This document shows positions 9,622-61,863 of a stretch of 64,000 bases of DNA, one piece after another. Position 1 is the stretch's first letter, and each line of letters starts with the position of its first letter. Source of the DNA: Phenylobacterium aquaticum. Lineage in GTDB: Bacteria > Pseudomonadota > Alphaproteobacteria > Caulobacterales > Caulobacteraceae. Under the pieces are notes generated by a model. It was not told the origin of the DNA and made no database searches. It saw only the letters and a program-made list of their open reading frames with translations. The position numbers and the translations under genes were made by a program. The DNA lies in assembly GCA_947378305.1 (NCBI GenBank), contig CANCJJ010000001.1, positions 186,001 through 250,000 on the forward strand. The letters run 5' to 3'.

Positions 9622-9636
9622 GTTCTATTTTTGTTC
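9622..9636 (+). promoter_or_regulatory. LexA (SOS) box upstream of comM
   Basis: The sequence gttc-tattttt-gttc is an exact match to the alphaproteobacterial LexA consensus GTTC-N7-GTTC. It lies 57 bp before the comM ATG. ComM-type genes are reported in the Caulobacter SOS regulon, so function here is likely. Confidence 0.85.
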
Positions 9637-9692: not shown

Positions 9693-11219
9693 ATGGCCGC
9701 ACGCGTCGTAACCGTAGCGTTTCAGGGTGTTGAAGCCAGACCAGTCGATGTTGAGGTTCAACTCACCGGCGGCGAACAGAAGTTCATGCTGGTCGGGCTG
9801 GGCGACAAGGCCGTTGCCGAGAGCCGGGAGCGCGTAAGGGCGGCCTTTGCTGGCCTGGGACTGGCCATGCCCGGGCGACGGATCATCTGCAATCTGGCCC
9901 CGGCTGACCTTCCCAAGGAAGGCAGCCATTATGACCTGCCGATAGCCCTGGCCGTCATGGCGGCCATGGGCGTCATACCGCCAGACGCCCTGTCAGGCTG
10001 GGCGGCCATGGGGGAATTGTCCCTGGATGGCCGGATCGTCGCGGCTGCCGGGGCCCTGCCCGCCGCCGTGGCTGCAGGCAGTCTGGGGCTGGGCCTCATC
10101 TGCCCCCAGGCCAGCGGGGCCGAGGCCGCCTGGGCCGGAGAGACCCCGATCCTTGCGCCCGCCTCGCTGATCTCCCTGGTCAATCATTTCCGGGGCACCC
10201 AGATCCTGTCAGCTCCCGACCCCGGCCAGATTCTGGAGGGCGGACCGGTGCCGGACCTGCGCGACGTCAAGGGCCAGGAAAGCGCCAAGCGTGCCCTGGA
10301 AATCGCCGCAGCCGGGGGCCACAATCTCCTGTTCATAGGTCCGCCCGGGTCCGGGAAGTCCATGATGGCGGCGCGCCTGCCGGGCCTGCTTCCGCCACTT
10401 TCTCCGGCTGAGCTTCTGGAAACCTCCATGGTGCATTCCGTGGCGGGCCTGATTGCGCGTGGCGAACTGACCCGGGCCAGACCCTTCAGAACGCCGCATC
10501 ACTCCGCGACCATGGCGGCCCTGACCGGCGGCGGCGTCCGGATCAAGCCCGGGGAAGTCTCCCTGGCGCACAACGGGGTCCTGTTTCTGGATGAACTGCC
10601 GGAATTTTCCGCCCAGGCCCTGGATTCCCTGCGCCAGCCCCTGGAAACCGGCGAGGTTACCGTCGCCCGGGCCAATGCCCACATCCGCTATCCGGCCCGG
10701 TTTCAGCTGATCGCTGCCGAAAATCCCTGCAAATGCGGGCATGGCGGGGTGGGCCGGGGGGCTTGTGGCCGCGCGCCCCGGTGTCAGATCGATTATCAGG
10801 CCAAGGTGTCTGGCCCCTTCATGGATCGCATGGATCTGCAGATCGACGTGCCCGCCGTCAGCGCGGCCGACCTCAGCCTTCCGCCCCCCACCGAAGGGAC
10901 GGCCGAAGCCGCCGGGCGGGTCAGTGCAGCCCGCGCCCTCCAGGCCGAACGGGCCCGCGCCTCGGGTCGGGAGGGGGCCAGCCCCCTTAATGCCCGCGCC
11001 GACGGGGAATGGCTGGAAACCATTGCCGATCCAGAACCCGCGGCCCGTGCCCTCATGGCCCGGGCGGCAGAGGCCGGAGCGCTGACGGCCCGGGGATGGA
11101 CCCGAATTCTCAGACTGGCGCGAACCATTGCCGACCTGGACGGCGCAGGTCCCGTCGGGCGATTGCACGTCGCAGAGGCCCTGGCCTACCGGCGGGTTGG
11201 GCTCAGGGCTGAGGGCTAG
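9693..11219 (+). CDS. comM: ComM-type Mg-chelatase-like AAA+ ATPase
   Basis: ComM proteins are AAA+ helicases that promote branch migration during integration of transformed DNA. The 508-residue protein has an N-terminal ChlI/Lon-like domain, including LVGLGDKAVAESRERVRAAF. Walker A is LFIGPPGSGKSMMAARLPG near residue 218 and Walker B is GVLFLDELPEFS. The Mg-chelatase C-terminal region carries cysteines (NPCKCGH and CGRAPRCQ). The upstream GTTC-N7-GTTC box places it under LexA control, linking it to DNA-damage recombination. It stands alone between gshB and the LysE-type gene. Confidence 0.93.
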   Translation: MAARVVTVAFQGVEARPVDVEVQLTGGEQKFMLVGLGDKAVAESRERVRAAFAGLGLAMPGRRIICNLAPADLPKEGSHYDLPIALAVMAAMGVIPPDALSGWAAMGELSLDGRIVAAAGALPAAVAAGSLGLGLICPQASGAEAAWAGETPILAPASLISLVNHFRGTQILSAPDPGQILEGGPVPDLRDVKGQESAKRALEIAAAGGHNLLFIGPPGSGKSMMAARLPGLLPPLSPAELLETSMVHSVAGLIARGELTRARPFRTPHHSATMAALTGGGVRIKPGEVSLAHNGVLFLDELPEFSAQALDSLRQPLETGEVTVARANAHIRYPARFQLIAAENPCKCGHGGVGRGACGRAPRCQIDYQAKVSGPFMDRMDLQIDVPAVSAADLSLPPPTEGTAEAAGRVSAARALQAERARASGREGASPLNARADGEWLETIADPEPAARALMARAAEAGALTARGWTRILRLARTIADLDGAGPVGRLHVAEALAYRRVGLRAEG

Positions 11220-59510: not shown

Positions 59511-59966
59511 TCAGCGGCCGCCGGTCGATCCAAAGCCCCCGGTGCCGCGCACGGTCTCGTCAAGCCGGTCGACTTCAACCCAGCTGGCCTGAACCACAGG
59601 GGCCACAATAAGCTGGCCTATGCGATCCCCCCGGCGAACCGTGAAGTCCTCTTCGCCCAGATTGATCAGGATGACGTGAACCTCACCCCGGTAGTCGGCA
59701 TCGATGGTGCCGGGGGTATTGGCCTGGGAAATTCCTGACTTCAGCGCCAGGCCGGAGCGGGGCCGGACCTGGCCCTCAAATCCCTTTGGCAGGGCAAAGG
59801 ACAGGCCGGTGGGAATGGCGGCCCGGGCCCCCGGTTTCAGAACCACAGGCTGATCCTCAGGAACCGCAGCGCGCAGATCCATTCCGGCCGAATCTTCCGT
59901 CTCATAGGCCGGAAGGGGCAGGTCGCGATTATGGTCCAGCCGGACCACCGGGATCATGGGTCTCAC
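59511..59966 (-). CDS. dut: dUTP diphosphatase
   Basis: Dut removes dUTP and supplies dUMP for thymidylate. The 151-residue trimeric-type protein has all motifs: [43 protein letters not shown] and the C-terminal [12 protein letters not shown]. The GTG at 59966 overlaps the coaBC stop (GTGA); an ATG at 59957 is possible. Confidence 0.97.
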
Positions 59967-61153
59967 GAAAGCTCCAGGGCTATGGTTTCAGCAAGTTTGC
60001 GCGCCACATCGGTCTTGGAGGTGCGCGGCCAGCGCTCAATGCCATCTTTTCGAAGAATGGCCACGGCATTGTCATCACCCCCCATGGTGCCGGCAATGGA
60101 GACATCATTGGCAATAATCCAGTCGCAGCCCTTTCGGGCAAGCTTGGCCTGGGCATAGGTCTCAACCTGATCGGTTTCAGCCGCAAAGCCTATGACCAGA
60201 CGGGGCCGGGCGGGGCCCTGGGACAGGGTGGCCAGTATGTCGGGATTTTCCACCAGGCTAAGGACGGGGGCTCCCTGGACGGTCTTTTTTGTCTTGGTGG
60301 TCGCAACACTTTCCGGTCGCCAGTCCGAGACCGCCGCCACACAAACCGCGATATCGGCAGGCAGGGCCGCCTGACAGGCCGCCAACATGTCGCGGGCCGT
60401 CTCGACATCCACACGCGTCACGCCCGCAGGTGTCGCCAGGGACACGGGTCCAGCCACCAGGATGACCTCTGCCCCCAGACTTGCGAGGGCTCCGGCAATC
60501 GCAAACCCCTGTTTTCCGCTCGACCGGTTGGTCAGGACCCGAACGGGATCGATGGGCTCCGCCGTCGGGCCGGCCGTGACAATGGCCCGCCTTCCCGTCA
60601 GGGGGCGGGCAAGGGGCGCAAGTCGGGCGAGAATGGCGGCAAGAATCTCTTCCGGCTCGGCCATGCGGCCCAGGCCGAACTCGCCACAGGCCATGTCGCC
60701 CTCGACCGGGCCAATCATCTGCACACCGTCAGCCTGTAGCTGAGCGAAATTGCGCCGGGTCGCGGCATGGTCCCACATGCGCACATTCATGGCGGGGGCC
60801 ATGAGGACGGGCTTGTCCGTGGCCAGCAGAACCGTCGTCGCCAGGTCATTGGCAAGCCCATGGACCGCCCGGGCCATCAGATCCGCCGTCGCCGGAACCA
60901 CAACCACAAGATCCGCCTGGCGGGACAACTGGATATGTCCCATCTCCGCCTCGTCGGTCAGGGAAAACAGTTCAGAATAGACCTTGTCTTCACACAGGGC
61001 CCCCAAAGACAGGGGCGTGACAAATTGCGCGCCCGCCGCCGTCAGGATGGGCCGCACGGCGATCCCGGCCTTGCGCAGGCCGCGAACCAGCTCAAGGCTC
61101 TTGAAGGCGGAAATGCCGCCGCCGACGATCAGAAGAATGCGCTTATCGGACAA
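59963..61153 (-). CDS. coaBC: Bifunctional phosphopantothenoylcysteine decarboxylase/synthetase
   Basis: CoaBC adds Cys to 4'-phosphopantothenate and decarboxylates the product on the way to CoA. The N-terminal flavoprotein domain has [20 protein letters not shown] and [10 protein letters not shown]. The synthetase domain has [34 protein letters not shown]. The track starts at TTG 61210. The TTG at 61153 ([13 protein letters not shown]) has a gagggg ribosome binding site about 8 bases upstream and fits homologues (396 aa). Its stop overlaps the dut start. Confidence 0.95.
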
Positions 61154-61223
61154 GGCCCTAGCCCCTCTGCAACAGGCGGGTGTTTTATTCCAATCAGGGG
61201 GACTCGACAAACATCTACATTTT

Positions 61224-61238
61224 GTTCATAGTTTGTTC
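61224..61238 (+). promoter_or_regulatory. LexA (SOS) box between coaBC and the lipoprotein gene
   Basis: The sequence gttc-atagttt-gttc is a perfect match to the alphaproteobacterial GTTC-N7-GTTC consensus. It lies 32 bp before the lipoprotein ATG (61270) and 71 bp from the coaBC start. An inverted repeat ttgttc-tcatc-gaacaa overlaps its right half (61233-61249). Confidence 0.85.
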
Positions 61239-61269
61239 TCATCGAACAACCCATGCGTGGAGAGGAAGC

Positions 61270-61863
61270 ATGTTAAAGGTGAGTTGGGTATTGACGGCCG
61301 GTCTCGGGCTCTTGGTTCTGGCCGGATGTGAGCGACCCTCGGCGATTGCGCCCCGGGGATCAGACGAAACAAGCCGCCCGTCATCGAGCGCCTACACGTC
61401 TGAGACGGACCGGTCGGGCAGCGGAAATTCGACCTCTGATGGACCTGCCCGGACCCGGGTTCAGGACGCGCCGGTCCGGCAGCTGAATGGCAAGCCAATC
61501 TGGTCGGCCAGCCGAAAGGGGTCGGCCGAAGAAAATGCGCAACGCAGCTTCCAGCGTAACGGTGAGGCCTTCGGCGCGCGCAGTCTGGATGACTATATCC
61601 GCAAGGCCCAGAGCTTCACCAGCCAGCCCCCTTCGGGAACCGAACGGCTGGAGCGAACCAATGGCGATGTCCTGCTTTACAATGCCAAGACAAATGTCTT
61701 TGCCGTCATGACCGCAGACGGGGCGCCGCGCGCCCTGTTCAAGCCCGATGATGGCCCGGCCTATTGGGCAAGCCAGAAGGCCCAGGTTCTGCAAAGGCAA
61801 ACCGCCAGGGCGGATCGCAGGTCCGGGCAAAAGCCATCTGGCGGTTCAGACCTAGCCCAATAG
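61270..61863 (+). CDS. Putative lipoprotein with toxin-like C-terminal domain, SOS-box controlled
   Basis: The ATG at 61270 follows a strong agaggaag ribosome binding site (197 aa). The N-terminus MLKVSWVLTAGLGLLVLAGC is a lipoprotein signal peptide with lipobox LAGC. A Ser/Thr-rich linker (about residues 22-70) follows. The C-terminal 90 residues (from SFQRNGEAFGARSLDDYIRK to DDGPAYWASQK) resemble small BECR-fold nuclease/toxin domains with the pattern F..xG.EFG...Y...A..F...P, GD...YN..TN.F.V...DG....F.P. The usual His before GxEFG appears as Asn here. No immunity gene is adjacent; its stop overlaps the ubiB stop by 12 bp, tail to tail. The function is inferred. Confidence 0.75.
   Translation: MLKVSWVLTAGLGLLVLAGCERPSAIAPRGSDETSRPSSSAYTSETDRSGSGNSTSDGPARTRVQDAPVRQLNGKPIWSASRKGSAEENAQRSFQRNGEAFGARSLDDYIRKAQSFTSQPPSGTERLERTNGDVLLYNAKTNVFAVMTADGAPRALFKPDDGPAYWASQKAQVLQRQTARADRRSGQKPSGGSDLAQ

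What the first reader, a model, noticed from the sequence alone, without database searches (positions are those of the whole stretch)
61224..61863. SOS-box lipoprotein with a toxin-like C-terminal domain
A perfect GTTC-N7-GTTC LexA box sits 32 bp before a lipoprotein whose C-terminal 90 residues resemble BECR-type nuclease toxins found in phage and contact-dependent toxins. DNA damage would thus induce an envelope-anchored or exported nuclease-like protein. The N-terminal part is a signal peptide plus a low-complexity linker. The usual motif His appears as Asn, so it may be inactive or binding-only. No immunity gene is adjacent.
Basis: partly seen in the sequence, partly recalled or inferred. 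Interest (0 to 1): 0.72.

Follow-up and report, generated by a model that had tools for sequence, protein, structure and literature searches.

The report
Domesticated toxin lipoprotein under SOS control
A DNA-damage-controlled lipoprotein found in nearly all Caulobacter relatives turns out to carry the RNA-cutting domain of a bacterial contact-killing toxin whose cutting residues have been lost, so a weapon seems to have been turned into a harmless, conserved part of the damage response.

Summary
The 197-aa lipoprotein (61270-61863, +) has a LexA box (61224-61238) overlapping the -10 of a sigma-70-like promoter. Its C-terminal domain is homologous, not merely similar, to a solved CDI toxin (PDB 8ey4 chain A: phmmer 7e-14, profile 1.5e-27; model pLDDT 92.7, TM 0.90, rmsd 0.8 A). 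Colicin D tRNase is the next fold match. The gene is a single-copy core gene of the window's family, Caulobacteraceae (141/149 genomes), divergent from coaBC-dut in 106/110 loci. A perfect LexA box lies upstream in 75/110, against 2 of 1,366 control windows. Toxin relatives keep His93, His97 and Thr155; the window has Ser, Asn and Ala. No box-bearing member keeps all three; the one clade that does has no box. The toxin's own immunity family (CPCC, chain I of 8ey4) sits directly downstream in three relatives, a relic of a toxin-immunity cassette. The domain is nevertheless under strong purifying selection. Best reading: a toxin domain domesticated as an SOS-inducible, exported, catalytically dead binding lipoprotein. 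LexA control is inferred, supported in Caulobacter crescentus by a strongly hypomethylated GANTC 2 bp from the box. The ligand is unknown.

The parts
61204..61232 (+). sigma-70-like promoter TCGACA-17-CATAGT reading into the lipoprotein
   Evidence: Consensus scan, 1 found against 0.2 expected. A CTCGAC/CTGGAC-type element recurs upstream of the box in 54 of 58 forward-box orthologues at -10, -20, -21 or -22 from the box start.
61224..61238 (+). LexA (SOS) box GTTCATAGTTTGTTC, overlapping the -10 element
   Evidence: Conserved upstream of 75/110 orthologues against 2/1,366 control windows.
61270..61863 (+). SOS-box lipoprotein, 197 aa
   Evidence: Orthologues in 141/149 genomes of the family.
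61270..61329 (+). lipoprotein signal peptide and lipobox (LAGC, Cys20)
   Evidence: Sequence. Cys20 invariant in the 44-row alignment.
61330..61485 (+). low-complexity linker, residues 21-72
   Evidence: Sequence. Higher dN/dS than the domain in most pairs tested.
61489..61776 (+). colicin-D/CDI-toxin-like BECR domain (residues 74-169) with toxin-invariant residues replaced: S93, N97, A155
   Evidence: phmmer to 8ey4_A E 7e-14; profile 1.5e-27; model pLDDT 92.7, pTM 0.85; Foldseek TM 0.90, rmsd 0.8; residues.
59963..61153 (-). coaBC (Dfp), divergent neighbour; shares the intergenic region
   Evidence: Pfam DFP and Flavoprotein. Divergent in 106/110 loci.
59511..59966 (-). dut (dUTPase), downstream of coaBC
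   Evidence: Pfam dUTPase.

Best explanation
A polymorphic-toxin cassette (colicin-D-fold CDI/Rhs toxin domain plus CPCC immunity gene) was captured early in the Caulobacteraceae and domesticated. The toxin domain was fused to a lipoprotein signal peptide and linker and fixed next to coaBC-dut, and in most lineages it came under LexA. Inferred working: LexA on the box blocks the promoter; DNA damage derepresses it; the protein is exported by Sec, lipidated at Cys20, and displays the domain in the periplasm or at the cell surface. In this species the domain should not cleave RNA (S93, N97, A155). It is kept for binding, of RNA or more probably of a protein partner, rather than for killing. Shown here: homology to the toxin, box conservation, residue loss, purifying selection, relic immunity gene. 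Inferred: LexA binding, induction, localisation, loss of activity, ligand.
For: Match to 8ey4_A. Core gene, single copy, 141/149 genomes of the family, 0 of 159 genomes in other families of the order. Box in 75/110 orthologues, with perfect AT-rich boxes elsewhere in the genome upstream of ssb, uvrA, radC, a PHP-domain (DnaE-like) gene and comM/yifB as internal controls. H93/H97/T155 kept in toxin and exported relatives but never all three with a box. Domain dN/dS 0-0.22 in 19 of 20 pairs, 0.34 in one. CPCC gene directly downstream in G003, G025 and G009, matching 8ey4 chain I at 1e-15. Inferred C. crescentus orthologue CCNA_03826: the top-50 hypomethylated GANTC at 3992382/3992384 falls exactly on -57/-59, 2 bp from the box, and is not listed as a MucR target (PMC5172544).
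Against: No expression or binding data were available here. The box is absent in about 30% of orthologues, so LexA control is not universal. Box presence and His loss fall mainly on one deep split of the tree (independent-pairs test p = 1), so they may be linked only by descent. T155 is kept in many His-less members (70 of 109 loci), so residual or altered catalysis is possible there. Other BECR enzymes work without histidine (colicin E5, PMC8616854).
Confidence: 0.66

Rival explanations
1. SOS-induced bacteriocin: an active, released or surface-displayed nuclease toxin, as colicins are.
For: The fold is that of a CDI toxin and colicin D. SOS control is typical of colicins (general knowledge). 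CPCC immunity is adjacent in three relatives.
Against: The full set of toxin-invariant residues is lost in all box-bearing members. No CPCC gene in the own genome or in 138/149 family genomes. Vertical, single-copy inheritance. No delivery domain. Strong purifying selection rather than toxin polymorphism.
Confidence: 0.08
2. Periplasmic RNase (nutrient scavenging or RNA clean-up) that still cleaves with altered catalytic residues.
For: The clade with intact H93/H97/T155 (14 loci), and exported single-domain relatives in other alphaproteobacteria with intact HxxxH (L184-L191), look like exported enzymes. T155 and K158 are widely kept; R129 and R154 nearly invariant.
Against: In the window H93, H97 and T155 are all replaced. 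Position 97 varies freely (N, D, F, Y, R, W), unlike a substituted catalytic residue.
Confidence: 0.14
3. The LexA box serves the divergent coaBC-dut operon (dUTPase in DNA repair) and the lipoprotein is a bystander.
For: coaBC-dut is divergent in 106/110 loci and dut is a DNA-metabolism gene.
Against: The box is closer to the lipoprotein start (typically 40-55 bp) and overlaps a promoter reading towards it. Locus L074 has no coaBC neighbour but keeps a box. The clade without a box still has coaBC beside the gene.
Confidence: 0.1

Closest known systems
CDI toxin domain of PDB 8ey4 chain A (E. coli O32:H37, with CPCC immunity chain I)
   Same: Same domain family: 38% identity over 83 columns in the structural alignment, TM 0.90, rmsd 0.8 A. 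Its CPCC immunity partner lies next to the lipoprotein gene in three relatives.
   Different: Here it is on a small lipoprotein, no delivery apparatus, H93/H97/T155 lost, immunity gene absent, core gene with LexA box.
Colicin D tRNase domain (5znm, 1v74, 1tfo, 1tfk)
   Same: Next-best fold matches, TM about 0.5-0.58. Toxin relatives carry Hxx[ED] and TxxK as listed for the Tox-ColD clade in PMC3482391. Colicins are also SOS-controlled (general knowledge).
   Different: No detectable sequence similarity; Hxx[ED] and TxxK are broken here; no immunity gene, no receptor or translocation domains.
Caulobacter SOS genes with envelope or death roles (sidA; bapE endonuclease)
   Same: LexA-regulated genes outside repair in the same family of bacteria (PMC12700426, PMC4211646).
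   Different: Unrelated by description; BapE is an endonuclease linked to damage-induced death, whereas this protein is predicted inactive and exported. BapE sequence was not compared here.

Membership tests
CDI/colicin-D-like BECR toxin domain (8ey4 family) | Sequence homology to the toxin domain | tested here: met
   phmmer 7.2e-14, profile 1.5e-27.
CDI/colicin-D-like BECR toxin domain (8ey4 family) | Fold | tested here: met
   AlphaFold2 model pLDDT 92.7; Foldseek 8ey4_A TM 0.90, colicin D next.
CDI/colicin-D-like BECR toxin domain (8ey4 family) | Toxin-invariant His93, His97 and Thr155 (Hxx[ED], TxxK) | tested here: not met
   Window S93, N97, A155.
CDI/colicin-D-like BECR toxin domain (8ey4 family) | Nuclease activity or toxicity | not testable with these tools
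   Needs an assay.
Polymorphic toxin-immunity system | Cognate immunity gene adjacent | tested here: not met
   None in the window; no CPCC in the own genome. Adjacent only in G003, G025, G009.
Polymorphic toxin-immunity system | Delivery module upstream of the toxin domain | tested here: not met
   Only a lipoprotein signal and linker.
Caulobacteraceae LexA regulon | GTTC-N7-GTTC box at the promoter, conserved in orthologues | tested here: met
   Window box overlaps the -10; 75/110 orthologues.
Caulobacteraceae LexA regulon | LexA binding and induction by DNA damage | not testable with these tools
   Indirect only: hypomethylated GANTC beside the box in C. crescentus (PMC5172544).
Bacterial lipoprotein | Signal peptide with lipobox Cys | tested here: met
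   LAGC20; Cys invariant in the 44-row alignment. Checked by eye and pattern, not with a dedicated predictor.

The most novel reading that the evidence does not exclude
The domesticated pseudo-toxin is an SOS-inducible shield: damaged cells put an inactive copy of a CDI/colicin-D-type toxin domain on their envelope, where it competes with incoming toxins of the same family for a receptor, import factor or processing protease. SOS induction would thus raise protection when neighbours release SOS-induced weapons.
Probability: 0.1. Interest if true: 0.82.

Novelty: new variant of a known kind. Interest (0 to 1): 0.58.

Why it matters
It would be a clear case of a polymorphic toxin domain turned into a core, SOS-wired cell component, with the immunity gene still caught in place in a few relatives. 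The inferred orthologue CCNA_03826 is in the model organism C. crescentus, where SOS genes of unknown function remain an open problem, so knockout, reporter and activity tests are straightforward. The clade with an intact active site and no LexA box offers a natural comparison.

Tried and rejected
Pfam, NCBIfam: no family. PHROGs gave only a portal-fused phage version; the phage collection gave one distant hit. First genome-contig scan with the single protein found nothing; a 5-row alignment found 149 relatives, 80 kept, mostly titled Caulobacteraceae. Link between box and His loss tested on a coaBC tree: one deep split, no independent support, so I do not claim cause. Absence of box in the HxxxH clade checked against its own variant box: uvrA there has GTTGCCAAATTGTTC-type sites, but no site with up to one mismatch lies upstream of the lipoprotein, so absence stands. 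Downstream genes as partners: DUF5076 in some Caulobacter and a 90-aa membrane-like ORF in one clade are lineage-restricted, rejected as immunity. Papers: no open text describes the gene as SOS-regulated or its function; the main SOS regulon papers (da Rocha 2008, Modell 2011, Bos 2012) are not held, so prior listing of this gene as SOS-induced cannot be excluded.

Full report
What is there. At 61224-61238 (+) lies GTTCATAGTTTGTTC, 31 bp before the ATG of a 197-aa ORF (61270-61863) that begins with a signal peptide and lipobox LAGC20. The box overlaps the -10 of the only promoter-like site in the region, TCGACA-17-CATAGT at 61204-61232, which reads into the lipoprotein. Upstream and divergent are coaBC and dut; downstream and convergent are ubiB and ubiE.

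Is the box more than chance? Alone it is not persuasive: the pattern occurs 57 times in the genome, the reversed control 63 times. Orthologues settle it. Perfect boxes, in either orientation, lie within 200 bp of 75 of 110 orthologous starts, against 0.5% of shuffled upstream regions and 2 of 1,366 other windows of the same loci. AT-rich perfect boxes in the same genome stand before ssb, uvrA, radC, a PHP-domain (DnaE-like) gene and, in the window at 9622, comM/yifB, so the motif is very probably the working LexA box of this organism.

The family. Searching whole genomes found the protein, usually once, in 141 of 149 genomes of the same family in 20 of 22 genera, and in none of 159 genomes of the other families of the order. 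Records found with a family alignment are mostly titled Caulobacter, Phenylobacterium and other Caulobacteraceae; shared contig lengths suggest the window's own genus is Phenylobacterium (inference). The gene is divergent from coaBC in 106 of 110 loci. It is a vertically inherited core gene, not a mobile toxin.

The domain. Residues 89-169 match PDB 8ey4 chain A, a contact-dependent growth inhibition toxin (phmmer 7.2e-14; profile 1.5e-27). A model of residues 66-182 from 74 window and relative sequences has pLDDT 92.7 and pTM 0.85. Foldseek puts 8ey4_A first (TM 0.90, rmsd 0.8 A) and colicin D tRNase structures next (TM about 0.5-0.58). The same domain ends Rhs, CdiA and filamentous-haemagglutinin proteins on plasmids.

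The active site. In the toxin and exported relatives that cover them, H93, H97 and T155 are kept (HWxKH ... RTMFKP), agreeing with the Hxx[ED] and [TS]xxK motifs given for the colicin D clade (PMC3482391). The window has S93, N97 and A155. Among 109 loci, all three are intact in 14, all in one clade without a LexA box; none of the 75 box-bearing loci keeps the full set. On a coaBC tree this is essentially one deep split, so the two traits may be linked only by descent. Domain dN/dS is 0-0.22 in 19 of 20 close pairs, including His-less ones, so the domain is maintained for something.

The relic. CPCC (PF14206) proteins are the immunity partners of this toxin family: one overlaps the toxin gene on a Rhizobium plasmid, another follows the domain in a viral contig, and chain I of 8ey4 is one. 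None is in the window's genome and only 11 of 149 family genomes have any. The pair of the solved toxin-immunity complex is thus still side by side there, which is strong evidence that the lipoprotein descends from a toxin cassette.

In vivo lead. Coordinates in two papers fit C. crescentus NA1000 CCNA_03826 as the orthologue: 184 aa with a 4-bp overlap with a 120-aa downstream ORF, as in L030 (PMC5869019). A GANTC at 3992382/3992384, among the most hypomethylated in the genome and not listed as a MucR target, falls exactly on -57/-59, 2 bp from the LexA box (PMC5172544). A protein occupying this site, plausibly LexA or RNA polymerase, would explain it; this is inference. The transcripts of CCNA_03825/03826 also co-purify with the sRNA GsrN (PMC5869019).

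How it most likely works. LexA represses; DNA damage derepresses; the protein is exported and lipidated; the dead toxin domain acts as a binding module at the envelope. Derepression, localisation, loss of activity and ligand are inferred. Novelty: a new variant of a known kind, a domesticated pseudo-toxin in the SOS regulon. I cannot exclude that this gene appears in older SOS gene lists that are not held here.

Noticed in passing
window 9622-9636: Perfect AT-rich LexA box GTTCTATTTTTGTTC about 57 bp before a comM/yifB-like Mg-chelatase gene (9693-11219).
   Followed up: partly
L184, L185, L187-L191 (other alphaproteobacteria): Small proteins with an N-terminal hydrophobic or signal segment and a single colicin-D-like domain with intact HxxxH, without a LexA box within 300 bp upstream; possible exported RNases.
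   Followed up: partly
L286-L288, L290 upstream of uvrA: In the clade without a box at the lipoprotein, uvrA is preceded by GTTGCCAAATTGTTC-type sites, suggesting a shifted LexA motif.
   Followed up: partly
L141 (G000:C7:110800-112400): A strong AT-rich LexA box lies 106 bp before a phage terminase-small-subunit-like gene, perhaps a LexA-controlled prophage.
   Followed up: no
L075 (G083:C4): A second, toxin-like copy of the domain with HxxxH inside a 327-aa open frame in one family genome.
   Followed up: no
L030, L035 downstream of the lipoprotein: DUF5076 gene follows or overlaps the lipoprotein in several Caulobacter; inferred NA1000 equivalent CCNA_03825, whose transcript co-purifies with sRNA GsrN.
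   Followed up: partly
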